64,000 nucleotides of DNA. Source: Chloroherpetonaceae bacterium (lineage in GTDB: Bacteria > Bacteroidota > Chlorobiia > Chlorobiales > Thermochlorobacteraceae). Numbering within the stretch: the first letter of the stretch is position 1; every line of letters begins with the position of its first letter. Below the pieces are notes generated by a model. The model had not been told where the DNA came from. It saw only the letters and a program-made list of their open reading frames with translations, and searched no databases. Shown here piece after piece: positions 2,297-12,265 of the stretch. The translations under genes were made by a program, and so were the position numbers. The stretch is from contig JANWWA010000001.1 in assembly GCA_025056565.1 (NCBI GenBank), forward strand, positions 221,966 through 285,965. The letters run 5' to 3'.

Positions 2297-3292
2297 ATGC
2301 TTGCCTTTGAGAAAAAATTTTTGGAGCATTGCCAGAAGCGCAAGTTTTTTGAAAAAGGTGAACGGGTGCTGGTTGCCTTTTCAGGCGGGGCAGACTCCAC
2401 AGCGCTTCTGCATCTCTTGCTTGCTGTGCGCCCCGTGTTGAAAGTGGAGCTGGGCGCTGCTCATTGCAATTTTCAATTGCGTGCCCGTGCTAGCTTGCTT
2501 GATGAGCGGTTCTGTCAAAAAACTTGCGCCAGTCACGGTATCCCTTTCTTTGTGGAACGCTTTGCCACTGCAGAAATTGCCAAAGCCCAGAAAACTTCAA
2601 TCGAAGAGACTGCCCGAAACCTGCGATACGACTTTTTTCAACGCGTCATGCAAGAGCACGGATACGATACGCTTGTTACAGCTCATCAAGCTAACGACAA
2701 TGCCGAAACGGTGCTTTTCAATCTCTTTCGTGGTGCGTCGCTGCTGGGACTGGGCGGCATTCCAGAGCGGCGCGCACATATCCTTCGCCCCCTGCTTCCC
2801 TTCGAGCGCTATGAGCTTCTCCAATACCTGCATGCACGCCACTTGCCTTATCGCATTGACCGCAGCAACTTTGACATAGACTACGACCGCAATTTCATTC
2901 GCCACAAAGTCATACCGCTCCTTGAACAGCGCTTCGAGCACAAACTTGTGCCCAGTCTTTTACGCCTGTCACAAAATGCCGCAGAGCTTTCGGAGTTTGT
3001 AGAACACCACATTGAGACTCTCCTCCGAAAAAAAGGTCTTTCACTCTCACACAATGCATTTGAGGTCAAAACCTTGCAGAAACTGACCCTATTTGAGCAA
3101 AAGGAGCTTTTTAAGCGCGCGCTGAAAAAGTTTGGCCTTTCTCCAACAGCGCAGCAATTGCAAAGCCTTACTAACTTACTTTGTCTCCAATCAGGCAGGA
3201 AGGTGGTAATTAACTCGAAGCTGGAAGTTATTCGGAAAGGCACACACATCTACTTTGTGGAAAAAGCAGCAGGAGAAGACCCTGCGCGCTAA
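2297..3292 (+). CDS. tilS: tRNA(Ile)-lysidine synthase
   Basis: Adds lysine to C34 of tRNA-Ile(CAU) so that it reads AUA codons; essential in most bacteria and cytoplasmic. The N-terminal PP-loop ATPase motif SGGADSTALLHLL is at about residues 29-41, followed by GAAHCNFQLR, the AHQANDNAET helix and the FLRP-like LRPLLPF segment seen in TilS. At 331 residues it is a medium-length member with a short C-terminal domain. The last 4 bases overlap the end of the convergent 1158-residue gene on the other strand. Confidence 0.93.
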   Translation: MLAFEKKFLEHCQKRKFFEKGERVLVAFSGGADSTALLHLLLAVRPVLKVELGAAHCNFQLRARASLLDERFCQKTCASHGIPFFVERFATAEIAKAQKTSIEETARNLRYDFFQRVMQEHGYDTLVTAHQANDNAETVLFNLFRGASLLGLGGIPERRAHILRPLLPFERYELLQYLHARHLPYRIDRSNFDIDYDRNFIRHKVIPLLEQRFEHKLVPSLLRLSQNAAELSEFVEHHIETLLRKKGLSLSHNAFEVKTLQKLTLFEQKELFKRALKKFGLSPTAQQLQSLTNLLCLQSGRKVVINSKLEVIRKGTHIYFVEKAAGEDPAR

Positions 3293-6200
3293 GGCATCGG
3301 ACATAGACGCGCAGGACTGCGGTCAGAGACAAAATCAAACTCGAAGAGCACCCCAAAGTGGAACATCCATTGCCCTCCATATGTGACAAAATTGCTGCCA
3401 TCGGCGGTAAAGAAACCTTGCCGCAACGGTTGTGAGAAGCGGTCCAAACCATATGTGGCACTGGCAAATAGCCGTGTTGGGAAAATGTAGAACGATGGTG
3501 CTTCTAAGCGCAGCTCAAAGCCAATGTCACGCCGCCATGCCGAGAGAGCAGGCACACCGCCTTGCGACCACGCTGTGCCAATATCAAAGAATGTGGAGAG
3601 ATAGAGCTTATCGAAATAGAACTGTGCCACCTGCCAGTTGATACGCTCCAGAAGCGGAAAGCGATACTCAATGTGGAGAAATGCCGCCTTGTCGCCCCCG
3701 ATTGCAAAGTATTCGTAACCTCGCATTCCCAAAAGCCCTGAGATAAAATTGTGGAAGAAAATGTTTGTTTCTCGCCCCGTGAAGTTCAGGGCGGCATAAG
3801 CACGCAAGGAGAGTGTGTGGCGAAAGTTTGGATTGAAAGCAGGAAGCGGTAAGTAAAAATTGAAGTCAGTCGTAAGCCGCAAAAAGGAAAATGTTTGATA
3901 CTGTGGAATCAAGCGACCTGCGCTTTCGCTGAACACCAGTGAATCTTGCAAGCTGCTATGCTCATAATCCAATCGAATGCGGGAGAAAAAGCCGATTGGG
4001 TTAATGGCGGCGTGGGTTGTCCGAGCACGCAAATCTGTGTTCCAGACAAATGTCAGCGTGCGACCGATAAAGTAGGTCTCAGAGCTGGCTGGCAAGGTTT
4101 GTCCAAGTGGTTGCCAGAAAAATGCGCTGACTTTTGAGCTATACGGACTGAACGAGAAAGTGAGCCGAAATTGACTTGCTTGAAACAGCCAGTGCTCAAT
4201 CGGTAGTCGGAAACGCAGCGAAAGATCGAACTGCGTTAGCGTGTAGAAGACATTTGCAGTGGCGCTATCAATCCCAATTTTGATTTGCGCGCCATCTTGC
4301 ACATTGCGCGTTTGATGGTAGATGTCTAGCGACAGACGTGGTAGAAAGGCAGGCGGCAGCACGTTCTGGTCCGTGTATTCAAACGAAAGCAGTGCGTCAC
4401 GCTCCAGCTCCAAGAGCCCAGCTAATCCTGATGCGCCCCCTGAGACGCCAGAGCCGGGCGCCATCGCCAGCGAACCGAAGAAACTCAGACGTCCTAACAG
4501 CTCCGATGAGCCAAATGCGACGCCAAGTTTCGTTGCACGCCACACATCACGCAGAAAGCTGCCTTGTGTTCGGGCATAGCCATCAAAGCGCAGAAGCGGC
4601 AAGATAGACAACGTGCTGAAAGTAGTGCTGTATTCGGTCGACTTAAAGTTAGGGACTTTGCGATCATCATAGTCCGATAGCTGCGCGGCTACAGCCCTTT
4701 GCGAAGACAATGCTTGCGACCCTTGCATGGTTGCCGAAACCAGTGATGCCAGTGCTTGCTCCACCGTTTCCGCTTCGCTGTGCTCTTGCAATGTGCTCGC
4801 TGCTGGAATTGGGGTTGGCACTCTGACATACTGCGCATTCGGATAAGCAATCGGTTCGGCTTGCTTAATCAAAGCAATTTTGTAGCCATCGGCGGTGAAA
4901 AGCGAATAGACAAGGTCGCCAAACTGGTTGACTGCTGGCATAAATGCACCGCCCACCACATTTGTCATCTGTTCCACTTTATGTGTCGAAAGGTGCATAC
5001 GATAAATGTTGAAAATGCCCGTGCGATTGCTTGCAAAGTAGAGGAATGTGCCATCGGGCGAAAGCGCCGCATCACGCTCGTCAAGGTCTTCGGGCACATC
5101 AAGAGAATCAGTGAGCGGCATCAGAGCACCTGTTGCAAGTTCAAGCAGCATCAATCGGCGTGAATTCTTAACGCCTAATGCGAAAACAAGGTGCTTACCA
5201 TCGGGCAAGTAAAGTGGCGATTGTACCTGCTCGCCATTCGAGAAGTGCGTGAGTGGGCGAATTGCCAGTTTTACGCTGTCGCCGTCCGCATCTGGAATGA
5301 AATTGCCTTCTACCAAATTCTGCGTGCCATCGCGCTGGTGCACGGCGACAAATCGCGTCTCATCTGGTGAGAGCGCAGGCATTTCCAGCCGTGCTTGGTA
5401 AGTCAAGCGACGCTCTTGGCGTGTGTGCAAATCATAGACGAAAAGGTCGTTATACTTTTGAATGCGAAAGTTTGTGCCTGTGTAGCGAGAGTAGAGGAGA
5501 AATCGCTCATCTTTGGTAAGCACCAAACGCGACGACACGCCGCTTTGCAGCACATCCAGACTGGTCGGGTGAAACGGTCGTGCACACACTTTGCACTGCG
5601 AAAAGCGTGGCTCACGCTCTCCTGCTGCGTAAAGTTGCGTCAATTTGCGGACGGTTGGCATGGCCTCTGAGCACAGTGAATCACCGTATAGGCGGCGCGT
5701 TAGCACGCTATGTCCGCCGAAATCTGCACCAAGATTGGAGATGTAGTAGAGGCGGCTGCCATCAGGTGAAAAGACCGGGTAGAGATTCGCATAGCCACGC
5801 GATTCAATGATTTTGCCTTCAACTTGATGCGCCAGCACAGGCGCAATGCGGGCTTGGTAGTCTCGCTCGAGATATGTGCGCCATTCCTGATAGATTTCAC
5901 TGGACGGCTTGCCAAAGGTTTGCTCCACTGCAGCATGCATATTGAGCGTGCCCAGCGAGGCAAAGTTTTTGCAGAGCGCAGCCAGTTTCTCCTCGCCATA
6001 CCGCATAGCCAGAAAGCGCGCCAGTGCAAAGCCAGAGTTGTAGGTAAATTCAAAATCAATGCTGCGCTTAGAGCTGAAGTTAGAAAGCTGGTCGAAGTCC
6101 AGAAGTTTGTGCTCGAGCGTTAGCGTGCGCAAAATCATATCGCGGTGTGTGTCCCAAGTGTCGTAACGCAGCTCAGGACGTTGGTATTGCGCCACACCTT

Positions 6201-6765
6201 CCGCCAGCCAAAATGGGACATTGATACCTGCAATTGGGTAGGATACCACAAGATTTGGAAAGCCATAGAGAATGTCTGGACGGCGAACCTGCTCATAGCC
6301 AAAGACTTGCAAGTATATGGCAGGCACTTGTTGCCCAAATTTCTGAGCTGCGGTCAGCGAGACAATATGCGTGTATTCATGCGTGATGACATTGCGTAGC
6401 CAATTATGCTGACCGCGCAAGTTGAATTCCAGTGCTGGCGCCCAGATTTCAATCTTGTTCTCAAAAAAGTATGCGCCACCGTTGGAGTAGTCATCTGTGT
6501 CCTTGATAATGATATGCACTTTGCCGGGGTCGTGCTGATACAGTGAGGTAATTGGCTTGTAAATTTCCTCTGCAATTTTCGCCGCGACCTTTGCGCTGCG
6601 CTCAGCGCCTTCGTGGTAGTGAATTGCAAAGTGTTCGGTCTCAATCGTCAGCCAGCGTAACTCGGGGTGGCTGTAGGCTTCAGGCTGCGCCCAGAGTGTT
6701 GGCGCGCCGCCAAGTAGACACCCTAGTAGAACGGCAAAAGCGGCAGTAGCTCGCAACGGCTGCAT
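3289..6765 (-). CDS. Secreted metalloprotease-like / TolB propeller / outer-membrane barrel protein
   Basis: A 1158-residue protein in three parts. Residues 1-26 form a signal peptide ending LWA. Residues about 40-300 look like a peptidase of the gluzincin type: HEYTH at 129-133 and a later FWLAEG with E189 as the likely third zinc ligand. Residues about 320-660 contain at least four TolB/WD40-like blades ending in SPDG or similar (VFSPDGSRLYY, ALSPDETRF, YLPDGKHLVF, ALSPDGTFLYF). Residues about 720-1158 are strand-rich, with the GLLGMRGYEYFAIGG and FFDIGTAW segments typical of Omp85/surface-antigen barrels. Inference: a cell-surface protein anchored by its own barrel, with the catalytic part in the periplasm or outside. 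Substrate unknown. The gene stands alone between tilS and the flavoprotein gene. Confidence 0.75.
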   Translation of the reverse strand: MQPLRATAAFAVLLGCLLGGAPTLWAQPEAYSHPELRWLTIETEHFAIHYHEGAERSAKVAAKIAEEIYKPITSLYQHDPGKVHIIIKDTDDYSNGGAYFFENKIEIWAPALEFNLRGQHNWLRNVITHEYTHIVSLTAAQKFGQQVPAIYLQVFGYEQVRRPDILYGFPNLVVSYPIAGINVPFWLAEGVAQYQRPELRYDTWDTHRDMILRTLTLEHKLLDFDQLSNFSSKRSIDFEFTYNSGFALARFLAMRYGEEKLAALCKNFASLGTLNMHAAVEQTFGKPSSEIYQEWRTYLERDYQARIAPVLAHQVEGKIIESRGYANLYPVFSPDGSRLYYISNLGADFGGHSVLTRRLYGDSLCSEAMPTVRKLTQLYAAGEREPRFSQCKVCARPFHPTSLDVLQSGVSSRLVLTKDERFLLYSRYTGTNFRIQKYNDLFVYDLHTRQERRLTYQARLEMPALSPDETRFVAVHQRDGTQNLVEGNFIPDADGDSVKLAIRPLTHFSNGEQVQSPLYLPDGKHLVFALGVKNSRRLMLLELATGALMPLTDSLDVPEDLDERDAALSPDGTFLYFASNRTGIFNIYRMHLSTHKVEQMTNVVGGAFMPAVNQFGDLVYSLFTADGYKIALIKQAEPIAYPNAQYVRVPTPIPAASTLQEHSEAETVEQALASLVSATMQGSQALSSQRAVAAQLSDYDDRKVPNFKSTEYSTTFSTLSILPLLRFDGYARTQGSFLRDVWRATKLGVAFGSSELLGRLSFFGSLAMAPGSGVSGGASGLAGLLELERDALLSFEYTDQNVLPPAFLPRLSLDIYHQTRNVQDGAQIKIGIDSATANVFYTLTQFDLSLRFRLPIEHWLFQASQFRLTFSFSPYSSKVSAFFWQPLGQTLPASSETYFIGRTLTFVWNTDLRARTTHAAINPIGFFSRIRLDYEHSSLQDSLVFSESAGRLIPQYQTFSFLRLTTDFNFYLPLPAFNPNFRHTLSLRAYAALNFTGRETNIFFHNFISGLLGMRGYEYFAIGGDKAAFLHIEYRFPLLERINWQVAQFYFDKLYLSTFFDIGTAWSQGGVPALSAWRRDIGFELRLEAPSFYIFPTRLFASATYGLDRFSQPLRQGFFTADGSNFVTYGGQWMFHFGVLFEFDFVSDRSPARLCPMP

Positions 6766-6899: not shown

Positions 6900-8333
6900 C
6901 TATTGAGCCGGTAAGGACACACGACGCTCACACTTGGACTTGAAAAATGTGCTTGGGTCAAAGATTTTGCCGGGATTCAGCACGCTATGAGGGTCTAAGG
7001 CGGCTTTGAAGCGACGCATCACTTCCACTTGCGTGCTACCTGCAGCTTTTTCGAGAAACTTTTTCTTTGCCAGCCCTGTGCCGTGCTCACCCGTAATGGT
7101 ACCACCAAATTGCACGGCTGCATCAAAGATTTTTTCAAAGAAACACTCGCTGCGGTGCACTTCATCTTTATTTCGCTCGCTAATGAGGCATGTCGGGTGC
7201 AAGTTGCCATCGCCAAGATGACCAAAGTTTCCGACCAACACTTGATGGGCTTTGGCAGTGCGTTGCACCAGCTCCAACATATCGGGCAAGGCTGAGCGTG
7301 GCACGCTTGCATCTTCCAGAATGGTCGTAGGTCTTAGGCGCGCTAATGCCGAGAAAGCGGACTTGCGTGCCAGCTTGAGGCGCGAAGCTTCGGCTTCAGT
7401 TTCCGCTGCACGCACAAAGCGTGCCCCCAGCTTTTGCGCAAGTTGAAAAACGGTTTGTGCTTCTTCTTCCACCACCGCCTTGTGCCCATCTAACTCAATC
7501 AGCACCAGTGCCGCACTATCCGTTGGTAGCCCTATCTTCGCATAGCCCTCTACGGCTTGAATGGTGGTTTGGTCTAAAAATTCAAACATCGCTGGCACAA
7601 TGCGAGCGCGCGCCACTTCCACTACGAATTCGCCCACTTTAGCCAGCGAATCCAGATACGCCACAATGACTCTCGAAGCTTCAGGCTTCGGCAAAAGCCG
7701 CAAAGTAGCTTTGGTGAAAATGCCTAATGTGCCCTCAGAGCCGATAAAGACATCTTTGAGATTTAGGCCCTGCACATCTTTGATGGAACGCGAGCCCAGC
7801 GTAATTAGCTCACCTGATGGCAACACCACATCAAGCGTCAGCACATAGTTTTTGGTCACACCATACTTCAAGCCCCGCAAGCCCCCCGCATTCTCGGCAA
7901 TGTTGCCACCAATGGTAGAAATGGTCGCACTGCCCGGGTCAGGCGGATAAAACAAGCCTTTTTCTTCTACTGCCTTTTGCAGCACTGCAGTGATAACGCC
8001 GGGCTCTACAGTTGCGGTAAAATCTGCTTCGTTAATCTCCAAAATGCGGTTCATCGGTGGAAAAAGCAGCACGATGCTATCTGGCACAGGCACGCTTCCA
8101 CCTGAAAGCCCAGAACCCGAACCACGTGGCACCACCGCAAAGCGTGCTTCATTGGCTAATTGCATAATCTTACATACCATTTCGGGCGTGCGCGGGATGA
8201 CGACTGCCTCAGGCTTTTGGCGCAGCATCGGCGTGGCATCGTAGGAGTAAAGCAGCTTATCCAGCTCCGAATCCAAATAATTTTCTCTGCCGACGATTTC
8301 ACGAAGCGCATTTAGTACGCTTTTTGCAATCAT
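6900..8333 (-). CDS. FAD-linked oxidase, glycolate/lactate oxidase GlcD type
   Basis: A 477-residue flavoprotein of the vanillyl-alcohol oxidase fold. The FAD-binding half has PRGSGSGLSGGSVP near residue 70 and the PDPGSATISTIGGNIAENAGG segment near 135; the C-terminal half has GHLGDGNLHP and the late TGEHGTGLAKK, both typical of GlcD / D-lactate dehydrogenases. It would oxidise a 2-hydroxyacid such as glycolate or D-lactate and pass electrons to quinone or another carrier. No glcE or glcF (iron-sulfur partner) is nearby, so the electron acceptor is unclear. The start codon directly abuts the stop of the upstream lipoprotein gene's partner boundary (8333/8334), although the flavoprotein itself lies upstream in transcription only if the lipoprotein gene leads; the two are co-directional and probably co-transcribed. 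Confidence 0.88.
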   Translation of the reverse strand: MIAKSVLNALREIVGRENYLDSELDKLLYSYDATPMLRQKPEAVVIPRTPEMVCKIMQLANEARFAVVPRGSGSGLSGGSVPVPDSIVLLFPPMNRILEINEADFTATVEPGVITAVLQKAVEEKGLFYPPDPGSATISTIGGNIAENAGGLRGLKYGVTKNYVLTLDVVLPSGELITLGSRSIKDVQGLNLKDVFIGSEGTLGIFTKATLRLLPKPEASRVIVAYLDSLAKVGEFVVEVARARIVPAMFEFLDQTTIQAVEGYAKIGLPTDSAALVLIELDGHKAVVEEEAQTVFQLAQKLGARFVRAAETEAEASRLKLARKSAFSALARLRPTTILEDASVPRSALPDMLELVQRTAKAHQVLVGNFGHLGDGNLHPTCLISERNKDEVHRSECFFEKIFDAAVQFGGTITGEHGTGLAKKKFLEKAAGSTQVEVMRRFKAALDPHSVLNPGKIFDPSTFFKSKCERRVSLPAQ

Positions 8334-8941: not shown

Positions 8942-11292
<2,351 letters not shown>

Positions 11293-11320: not shown

Positions 11321-12265
11321 ATGAACCTTCAACAGTTAGAGTACATCGTTGCCGTAGAGCGATACAAGCACTTTGTAACAGCTGCTGAAAAGTGCTTCGT
11401 TACGCAAGCCACGCTTAGTATGATGATTAAAAAGCTTGAAGATGAGCTCGGTGTCAAGATTTTCGACCGTGCTAAGCAACCCGTTGTGCCGACTGTCATT
11501 GGTGAAAAAATCATTGAGCAAGCCAAAGTTGTGCTTCGTGAAGTCGCACGAATCAAAGAGATTGTTAAGGAAGAAACTGCACAGGTCAAAGGCGAACTCA
11601 AAATCGGTATTATTCCCACTCTTGCACCTTACCTTTTGCCGCTCTTTCTAAAAAACTTTTTAGCGAAGTATCCAGAGGTTAAACTGCAACTAAGTGAGCT
11701 GACCACGAGCGAAATCATTGAGCGTATCAAGCATAGCTCCTTAGATGCGGGCATTTTAGCTATTCCTCTCTCCGATCCTGACCTTATTGAACAGCCGCTC
11801 TTTAGCGAAGAATTTGTCATCTACTTTTCTGAGAAACATGCACAGTCCCCCAAAATGCATTTCTCCCCAGCCGACTTAGACGTCAGCCAGCTCTGGCTAC
11901 TGGACGAAGGACACTGTATGCGCAATCAAGTCATCAATCTCTGTGGCTTGAAGCTCGAAGAACGCAGTCGACATCGCTTAGATCTCTCTGCTTCGAGCAT
12001 CGAGACGCTCAAAAAAGTGGTCGACATCAATGAAGGCGTAACGGTGTTGCCTTACCTTGCGCTTCGTGATTTAACGAAAGCTCAGCTTCGTCGTGTGCGT
12101 TACTTCAAACCCCCTGTGCCTGTGCGAAAAATTGGGCTGGTTAGCTTTCGCTACTTTGTGAAAGAAAAAATGTTAGATGCATTGAAGGCTGAAATCCTCA
12201 GTGCTCTACCCCCTGAGATGCTAAGCGAGAAAAACAAAAAAGTGATTGAAATTAGCTTAGAGTAG
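11321..12265 (+). CDS. oxyR: Hydrogen-peroxide-sensing LysR-type regulator OxyR
   Basis: A 314-residue LysR-family activator. Residues 1-60 hold the winged helix-turn-helix (MNLQQLEYIVAVERY, AAEKCFVTQATLSMMIKKLE); the rest is the substrate-binding-like sensor domain. The segment LLDEGHCMRNQVINLC places cysteines at residues 199 and 208, the same numbering and spacing as the redox pair of E. coli OxyR, so it should sense peroxide by disulfide formation. It is divergently transcribed from katG across a 141-bp control region. The conserved cysteines separate it from other LysR proteins. Confidence 0.93.
   Translation: MNLQQLEYIVAVERYKHFVTAAEKCFVTQATLSMMIKKLEDELGVKIFDRAKQPVVPTVIGEKIIEQAKVVLREVARIKEIVKEETAQVKGELKIGIIPTLAPYLLPLFLKNFLAKYPEVKLQLSELTTSEIIERIKHSSLDAGILAIPLSDPDLIEQPLFSEEFVIYFSEKHAQSPKMHFSPADLDVSQLWLLDEGHCMRNQVINLCGLKLEERSRHRLDLSASSIETLKKVVDINEGVTVLPYLALRDLTKAQLRRVRYFKPPVPVRKIGLVSFRYFVKEKMLDALKAEILSALPPEMLSEKNKKVIEISLE

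What the first reader, a model, noticed from the sequence alone, without database searches (positions are those of the whole stretch)
3289..6765. Protease-propeller-barrel protein in one chain
One gene appears to join a HEYTH...E gluzincin-like domain, a TolB-like beta-propeller and an Omp85/surface-antigen-like barrel. If right, the protein anchors its own peptidase at the outer membrane. I know peptidase-propeller proteins in Bacteroidetes, but the C-terminal barrel makes a self-anchored machine of unknown job.
Basis: partly seen in the sequence, partly recalled or inferred. Interest (0 to 1): 0.5.

Follow-up and report, generated by a model that had tools for sequence, protein, structure and literature searches.

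The report
Outer-membrane barrel carrying its own protease
This gene encodes one protein that joins a zinc-protease domain, a propeller and an outer-membrane barrel, and in a broad sample of relatives it is always found together with a dead protease that carries an export tag for a protein-secretion machine (type IX), so the two probably work as a pair.

Summary
ORF 6765→3289 (minus strand, 1158 aa) has a signal peptide, a gluzincin peptidase, a TolB-type propeller and a C-terminal Omp85 barrel (16 long strands and an L6-type loop in a confident AlphaFold model). H129, E130, H133 and E189 are unchanged in 93 of 93 aligned relatives. A propeller+Omp85 class ("WD40-Omp85") has been in print since 2014; the text I saw mentions neither a peptidase in it nor a type IX link. 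Beyond the finding I found a partner. In 75 of 80 related loci the gene follows M6i, NCBI's "T9SS-dependent M6-like inactivated metalloprotease", with porV in 58 and porU in 50. In 247 Bacteroidota genomes both occur in the same 94, none with only one; all 94 also have the type IX translocon SprA, and the 58 genomes without SprA have neither. In 82 of 94, M6i lies just upstream. Three genomes keep the porV locus but lack both genes. M6i has no HExxH in 75 of 75 sequences, whereas this protein keeps its own. Best reading: a periplasm-facing, barrel-anchored protease that works with a type IX-exported pseudoprotease. The pairing is well supported; its mechanism is inferred.

The parts
3289..6765 (-). 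Whole coding sequence, 1158 aa peptidase-propeller-Omp85 barrel protein (called PPB here)
   Evidence: full-length relatives
6688..6765 (-). Signal peptide, residues 1-26; mature protein begins at Q27 (inferred)
   Evidence: helix 4-19 in model; Q27 kept in 92 of 93 after A/S/G/P at position 26; no signal-peptide program was run
5818..6672 (-). Gluzincin peptidase domain, residues 32-316
   Evidence: Peptidase_MA_2 in 36 of 36 ortholog domains scanned, at E<=1; own model pLDDT 83.8 and match to M30/M1/M9 peptidases; mean pairwise identity 0.588, highest of the domains
6367..6381 (-). HEYTH zinc-binding/catalytic motif, residues 129-133
   Evidence: H129, E130, H133 in 93 of 93
6199..6201 (-). 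E189, third zinc ligand by the gluzincin pattern (within WLAEG; pattern recalled)
   Evidence: E in 93 of 93
6049..6051 (-). E239, invariant residue of unassigned role
   Evidence: E in 93 of 93
4846..5817 (-). TolB-type beta-propeller, residues 317-640
   Evidence: PD40 56.3 bits; TolB Z 25.0 over 335-640
4645..4845 (-). Helical linker, residues 641-707
   Evidence: helices 656-697 with lower confidence; least conserved, mean identity 0.267
3343..4644 (-). Omp85-type 16-stranded barrel, residues 708-1141
3655..3738 (-). L6-type loop, residues 1010-1037 (GLLGMRGYEYFAIGGDKAAFLHIEYRFP), between barrel strands 11 and 12
   Evidence: position in model; R/K at 1015 in 88 of 93, Y/F at 1017 in 92 of 93, G1024 in 92 of 93

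Best explanation
The protein is an outer-membrane Omp85-type barrel that carries, on its periplasmic side, a TolB-like propeller and an intact gluzincin zinc-protease domain. It is one half of a two-protein module; the other half is M6i, a catalytically dead M6 metalloprotease that carries a type IX (T9SS) C-terminal export signal. Shown by computation: domain architecture, intact active-site residues, and a genetic pairing that is exclusive in the genomes examined (same 94 of 247, usually adjacent, missing together) and confined to T9SS-bearing genomes. Inferred: T9SS places M6i on the outer face of the membrane, where it docks on the extracellular loops of this barrel; M6i acts as the recognition or lid subunit, and the barrel-anchored active protease trims or quality-controls an exported or outer-membrane protein from the periplasmic side. 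The module is an accessory of T9SS, not part of its core, because T9SS persists in genomes without it.
For: Architecture. Active site intact in 93 of 93. Locus: among 80 related loci, clusters by BLAST put the M6i gene in 75, a DUF5683-like gene in 70, porV in 58 and porU in 50, all on the strand of PPB; identities by NCBIfam were tested on representatives only (L012: PorU 985.8 bits, PorV 260.7, M6i 964.7; L008: SprA 1059.7). M6i end to PPB start (starts inferred): 63 of 75 within -8..+100 bp, median 16, longest 857. Co-occurrence in 247 Bacteroidota genomes at least 90% complete: PPB in 94, M6i (E<=1e-60) in 94, identical sets; SprA in 189 including all 94; the 58 without SprA have neither. 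The score gap is wide: full-length orthologs 867-1625 bits (G134 in two pieces on two contigs), next best other match 177 bits. Co-retention where unlinked: the 12 genomes of the window's own order that hold PPB all hold M6i over its cut-off, on another contig or, in G009, 860 kb away. Joint absence at an otherwise kept locus in G211 and G268 (G159 of the same genus has both) and in G277 (G162 of the same genus has both); all three have SprA. M6i lacks HExxH in 75 of 75. Periplasmic side: the N-terminal enzyme domain of PlpD, another Omp85 protein, was found in the periplasm (PMC11116518, passages read).
Against: No physical interaction was tested; no complex was modelled. Co-occurrence is in part shared inheritance: by eye in the listings most families are all-or-none, so the independent events are few (three joint absences in two genera, two of them possibly one event, plus absence from family f4, which also lacks T9SS). 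Five of the 94 M6i matches (G098, G102, G106, G110, G259; 358-408 bits) are under the curated cut-off of 600 bits. 95 of 189 SprA-bearing genomes lack the module, so the T9SS link is one-way. In the window's own order, including its own genome, the gene has left the locus. Paralog-like proteins with the same N-terminal parts occur in genomes without SprA (G099, G018), so the build as such is not T9SS-specific. Which side of the membrane and which substrate are not shown.
Confidence: 0.45

Rival explanations
1. PPB is a general outer-membrane quality-control protease, like a fusion of BamA/BamB-like parts with a BepA-like metalloprotease, and sits beside T9SS genes only because that locus encodes several outer-membrane proteins.
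For: Omp85 barrel, TolB-like propeller and protease are all plausible parts of outer-membrane protein assembly; Heinz & Lithgow proposed a BamA-BamB-like role for propeller-Omp85 proteins; paralog-like proteins occur outside T9SS genomes.
Against: Does not explain the identical distribution with M6i (94 and 94, none alone), the paired absences or the absence from all 58 SprA-less genomes.
Confidence: 0.22
2. PPB is the outer-membrane assembly or anchoring partner of M6i (an Omp85 insertase/tether), and the protease only processes M6i itself, for example removing a propeptide or misfolded copies.
For: Same pairing evidence as the best explanation; M6i is about 1000 aa and carries the T9SS tail in L012.
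Against: T9SS with PorV/PorU already delivers and anchors type A cargo (recalled; abstracts), so a dedicated barrel for one cargo would be unusual; the peptidase is the most conserved domain, which points to a conserved substrate or reaction.
Confidence: 0.2
3. The peptidase and propeller are moved to the cell surface through or beside the barrel and degrade external protein (type Vd-like).
Against: For PlpD itself the enzyme domain was found in the periplasm; both ends of an even-stranded barrel face the periplasm (recalled; 16 strands).
Confidence: 0.08
4. The pairing with M6i is inherited linkage with no functional meaning.
For: Most families are all-or-none by eye, so linkage plus common descent explains much of the table.
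Against: 12 of 12 PPB-bearing genomes of the window's order keep both genes although unlinked; the absences take both genes and leave porV, in G211 also the DUF5683-like gene.
Confidence: 0.05

Closest known systems
WD40-Omp85 subfamily (Heinz & Lithgow 2014, PMC4104836; section 10 read)
   Same: TolB-like propeller joined N-terminally to an Omp85 barrel, described among the non-POTRA architectures
   Different: The word 'peptidase' occurs 0 times in the main text and 'type IX' 0 times; its 'metalloprotease' subfamily ('Metallo') is a separate one with PF00149, by recall a phosphoesterase family, not a gluzincin. The supplementary tables were not available, so whether this very family lies inside their cluster is not known.
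PlpD / patatin-like Omp85 (PMC11116518, passages read)
   Same: Enzyme domain N-terminal to an Omp85 barrel; enzyme found in the periplasm
   Different: Lipase plus POTRA, not protease plus propeller. The window genome also has a patatin-Omp85 candidate (L115; label by reading)
BepA (E. coli M48 outer-membrane quality-control protease; recalled)
   Same: HExxH metalloprotease working at the outer membrane
   Different: Peripheral, TPR-containing, no barrel; different peptidase family (recalled)
Lugdulysin (M30 gluzincin, 7bb8)
   Same: Top-ranked solved fold for the peptidase domain, Z 16.0
   Different: 13% identity over the alignment
T9SS attachment components PorU, PorV, PorZ
   Same: Shares the locus with porV in 58 and porU in 50 of 80 related loci
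   Different: None is an Omp85 barrel with a metalloprotease (recalled); PPB is missing from 95 of 189 SprA genomes

Membership tests
Omp85 superfamily | 16-stranded C-terminal barrel | tested here: met
   16 strands of >=8 residues between 720 and 1140; BamA barrels Z about 20-21.6
Omp85 superfamily | Sequence relationship to known members | tested here: met
   profile-profile 97.3%, E 2.4e-11 with own-genome Omp85s; PF01103 in 10 of 51 orthologous barrels at E<=1, not in the window protein itself
Omp85 superfamily | L6 loop with (V/I)RG(F/Y)-type motif (motif recalled) | tested here: met
   MRGY at 1014-1017 here; relaxed in relatives: K 54, R 34, Q 2, M 2 at 1015; G 52, S 32, A 7, C 1 at 1016; of 93 with one gap
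Omp85 superfamily | POTRA domain(s) | tested here: inconclusive
   no POTRA family in the Pfam scan and residues 32-640 are filled by peptidase and propeller in the model; POTRA-less subfamilies are described
WD40-Omp85 subfamily | Propeller N-terminal to Omp85 barrel in one chain | tested here: met
WD40-Omp85 subfamily | Falls in the published sequence cluster | not testable with these tools
Gluzincin peptidases (Peptidase_MA_2) | HExxH plus downstream Glu, conserved | tested here: met
   93 of 93; Pfam hit in 36 of 36 domains at E<=1, 45.2 bits in the window domain over cut-off 32.4; fold match M30/M1/M9
Gluzincin peptidases (Peptidase_MA_2) | Zinc binding and proteolytic activity | not testable with these tools
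   needs purified protein
T9SS core component | Present wherever the translocon SprA is present | tested here: not met
   94 of 189 SprA-bearing genomes have it
T9SS-dependent accessory module | Never present without T9SS | tested here: met
   94 of 94 have SprA; 0 of 58 SprA-less genomes have it; among 101 relatives the 13 with an ortholog are all among the 14 with SprA, and none of these is of family f4

The most novel reading that the evidence does not exclude
A two-sided protease machine of the outer membrane: a type IX-exported pseudoprotease on the outer face senses or holds polypeptide and, through an Omp85 barrel, controls an active zinc protease on the periplasmic face, a trans-outer-membrane form of regulated proteolysis that half of the sampled T9SS genomes carry.
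Probability: 0.2. Interest if true: 0.85.

Novelty: new variant of a known kind. Interest (0 to 1): 0.6.

Why it matters
The Omp85 proteins studied so far build or move outer-membrane proteins, while subfamilies with other N-terminal domains, the WD40-like one among them, are called not well characterised (PMC11116518, passage read). This gives one such protein a probable partner and pathway, both testable, and adds a likely accessory pair (barrel-anchored protease plus exported dead protease) to T9SS. It also gives a precise genetic test: two genes that come and go together.

Tried and rejected
Pfam on the window protein alone did not show the barrel; resolved with orthologs, profile comparison and structure. 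PDB sequence search with the barrel profile gave only weak TamA hits (E 0.22-0.67) and an unrelated hit; with the peptidase profile only one unrelated hit (E 1.5). Plasmids: one record, Salinibacter, 28% of the query at 24.5% identity. Literature: searches for Omp85+patatin+WD40+POTRA, Omp85+peptidase+propeller, WD40-like/Omp85/Ignavibacter/metalloprotease, T9SS+Ignavibacteria/PorU/Chlorobi (14 papers, 12 listed), PorU2/PorV2, T9SS+M6 metalloprotease+PorU/PorV (51 papers, 10 listed), T9SS+Omp85+propeller (0 papers), WD40-Omp85 (1 paper), T9SS+pseudoprotease and genus names (44 papers, 10 listed): among the listed titles and starts of abstracts I saw none describing this protein or its link to T9SS. 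Only three papers were opened: PMC4104836 (section 10, outline, passages), PMC11116518 (passages) and PMC5837995 (passages).

Considered and rejected: that PPB is a core T9SS part (95 of 189 SprA genomes lack it); that the DUF5683-like neighbour belongs to the unit (kept in G211 without the pair); that the conserved Q27 is special to this protein (PMC5837995 passages, report high frequency of Gln after the signal-cleavage site in Bacteroidetes, Chloroherpeton thalassium 55% and Ignavibacterium album 77%). VIA-align of the full model left the peptidase barely tested, so it was folded and searched alone. The M6i threshold in the 247-genome search was E<=1e-60, so weaker M6i relatives there were not seen; in the 101-relative search at E<=0.001 the genomes without PPB had M6i-model hits no better than 5e-10, over short stretches. 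In the 101-relative search 31 genomes had any match to PPB; 18 of these are weak (about 43 bits or less) and were not counted as orthologs. In the 247-genome search 131 had a match at E<=1e-20; 37 of them (177 bits or less) were not counted. Families and genera behind the joint absences are the unnamed f/g labels of the tool; I did not tabulate presence by family. Dropped before counts: M6i cluster members of 850 aa or less, and L130 (M6i of G006, with an internal stop), were left out of the 75-sequence M6i alignment; the structure alignment A1 holds 69 of the 93 relatives. Adjacency in 82 of 94 leaves G278 and G124 (same strand, 4.1 and 2.9 kb between matched stretches) and 10 on another contig or unlinked; for G176 both genes may lie at contig ends, which I did not check further. 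Loci that lack porU, porV or the DUF5683-like gene may end at a contig edge; this was checked only for the five without M6i.

Full report
What is there. Window 3289-6765, minus strand, encodes an intact 1158-aa protein. The genome is a 2.92 Mb draft in 75 contigs. The nearest named relatives are Candidatus Thermochlorobacter aerophilum (75% identity) and another Thermochlorobacteraceae bacterium (67%), so the organism is probably of that family. The gene overlaps the convergent ORF at 2297-3292 by 4 bases and lies 134 bases after a same-strand ORF at 6900-8333.

Domains. Pfam finds PD40 and Peptidase_MA_2 in this protein. The barrel escapes Pfam here, but PF01103 (Omp85) matches 10 of 51 orthologous barrel segments at E<=1, best 4.6e-9, and the barrel profile aligns with five Omp85 proteins of the same genome at 97.3% probability over 150 columns that end at both C-termini. 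AlphaFold on 69 aligned relatives gives pLDDT 85.5 and pTM 0.86: peptidase about 32-316, propeller 317-640, a poorly conserved helical linker, then 16 strands of eight or more residues from 720 to 1140 with the MRGY-bearing loop between strands 11 and 12. Against the PDB the propeller matches TolB (Z 25.0), the barrel BamA and TamA (Z about 20-21.6), and the peptidase folded alone lugdulysin M30 (Z 16.0), then M1 and M9 enzymes; of the five models of that domain only the best is confident (83.8 against 65-70), though the same region is also confident in the full-length model.

Active site. In 93 aligned relatives (90 after removing near-identical ones), H129, E130, H133, E189 and E239 are invariant. 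The peptidase is the most conserved domain: mean pairwise identity 0.588 against 0.436 for the propeller and 0.431 for the barrel, over the 69 rows of A1. This argues for a working enzyme rather than a relic.

Neighbourhood. In 80 related loci from named records (the best 80 of 181 confirmed stretches), a BLAST cluster of ~1016-aa genes is found in 75, one of ~300-aa genes in 70, one of ~396-aa genes in 58 and one of ~1328-aa genes in 50, all on the strand of PPB. Of the five loci without the first, two are Thermochlorobacteraceae and three are contigs that begin within 1 kb upstream. In locus L012 these genes are the T9SS sortase PorU (985.8 bits), PorV (260.7, over its equivalog cut-off of 250), the 'T9SS-dependent M6-like inactivated metalloprotease' NF052323 (964.7; here M6i) and a DUF5683 match below cut-off; in L008 the T9SS translocon SprA lies downstream. 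M6i lies upstream of PPB in all 75, with 63 within -8 to +100 bases, median 16 and longest 857 (starts inferred). Named carriers include Ignavibacteria, Kryptonia, Balneola/Balneolaceae and KSB1; in the KSB1 loci that I laid out (L051, L064, L069) M6i is present, porV in two of three, and no porU was seen.

Pairing. In 101 relatives of the window genome the protein (13 genomes) and M6i (12 over its cut-off plus G098 at 361 bits) have the same distribution; SprA and PorU occur in these 13 plus G100; none of the genomes with SprA, PorU or an ortholog is of the large family f4. In a phylum-wide draw of 247 genomes at least 90% complete, this protein occurs in 94 and M6i in 94 (89 over its curated cut-off), and the sets are identical; SprA occurs in 189 including all 94; 95 SprA genomes and all 58 SprA-less genomes have neither. 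M6i is upstream within 2.5 kb on the same strand in 82 of 94, on the same contig and strand in 84. In the 12 genomes of the window's own order that have both, the two genes are on different contigs or, in G009, 860 kb apart, yet both are kept; in the window genome M6i follows porV on contig C14.

A natural deletion. G211 and G268 have no ortholog and no M6i although a genome of the same genus, G159, has porV-M6i-PPB-DUF5683 in a row. In G211 porV is followed after about 0.5 kb by the DUF5683-like gene; in G268 both genes and the DUF5683-like gene are absent; both sites lie well inside long contigs, and by reading the flanking genes are the same as in G159. In G277 porU-porV is likewise kept without the pair, while G162 of the same genus has porU-porV-M6i and PPB. 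All three keep SprA. The pair thus appears to be lost as a unit; G211 and G268 may share one event.

The partner. M6i carries a T9SS sorting domain over cut-off in L012; in the window genome the Pfam match to that domain is just under cut-off (26.3 against 27 bits). It has no HExxH in 75 of 75 aligned sequences; where an active M6 enzyme has HEFGH (recalled) it reads, for example, ASFAS in the window genome. So a dead, presumably exported protease is coupled to a membrane-anchored one with an intact site.

How it most likely works. Both ends of a 16-stranded barrel face the periplasm (recalled), and for PlpD, an enzyme-Omp85 whose topology was tested, the enzyme was found in the periplasm (PMC11116518, passages read). 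I therefore place the peptidase and propeller in the periplasm (inferred). M6i should be outside after T9SS export (inferred from its tail). The economical model is a complex across the outer membrane in which M6i recognises or caps and this protein cuts. That the two work together I hold at about 0.85; the stated arrangement at about 0.45, counting its variants.

What is known and what is new. Propeller-Omp85 fusions were named in 2014 (PMC4104836, section 10 read), with a BamA-BamB-like role suggested; word counts in its main text show no 'peptidase' and no 'type IX'. A 2024 paper still calls that subfamily not well characterised. My literature searches showed, among listed titles and starts of abstracts, no description of this protein or of its link to T9SS; subscription papers and preprints were not searchable. 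So: a known kind of barrel, in a variant with an intact protease and a new, testable partner.

Noticed in passing
L158:662-4222 (G000 contig C14, minus strand): Own-genome paralog, 1187 aa, with Peptidase_MA_2 (HELIH read in its sequence) and PD40 repeats; no barrel family was found in it and its C-terminal part was not tested further. Proteins with similar N-terminal parts also match weakly in genomes without SprA (G099, G018).
   Followed up: partly
L112-L116 (own genome): Five further Omp85 proteins over Pfam's cut-off, among them a BamA-like one (L112) and one whose N-terminal part reads as patatin-like (L115), so this genome has several Omp85 subfamilies (labels by reading).
   Followed up: partly
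window 6685-6687 (Q27): Gln at the inferred mature N-terminus in 92 of 93 relatives, with A, S, G or P before it; fits the Bacteroidetes Q-rule, which PMC5837995 (passages) reports as high also in Chloroherpeton thalassium and Ignavibacterium album.
   Followed up: partly
L161 around 9622-9773 (G268) and L160:9221-10120 (G211): The DUF5683-like gene is absent together with the pair in G268 but kept in G211, so it is not strictly part of the unit.
   Followed up: yes
L006:9231-9995 and the same cluster in L005, L029, L057, L059, L068: An extra gene of about 230 aa (FlgD_ig match; lipoprotein model below cut-off, in L006) lies near M6i and this gene in six of 80 loci.
   Followed up: no
window 8942-11266 and 11321-12265: By reading, a catalase-peroxidase gene divergent from a LysR-type (OxyR-like) regulator; an ordinary-looking oxidative-stress pair, not tested.
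   Followed up: no
PMC4104836, section 10: The paper calls its PF00149 'Metallo' subfamily metalloproteases; by recall PF00149 is the calcineurin-like phosphoesterase family, so that subfamily may be mislabelled.
   Followed up: no
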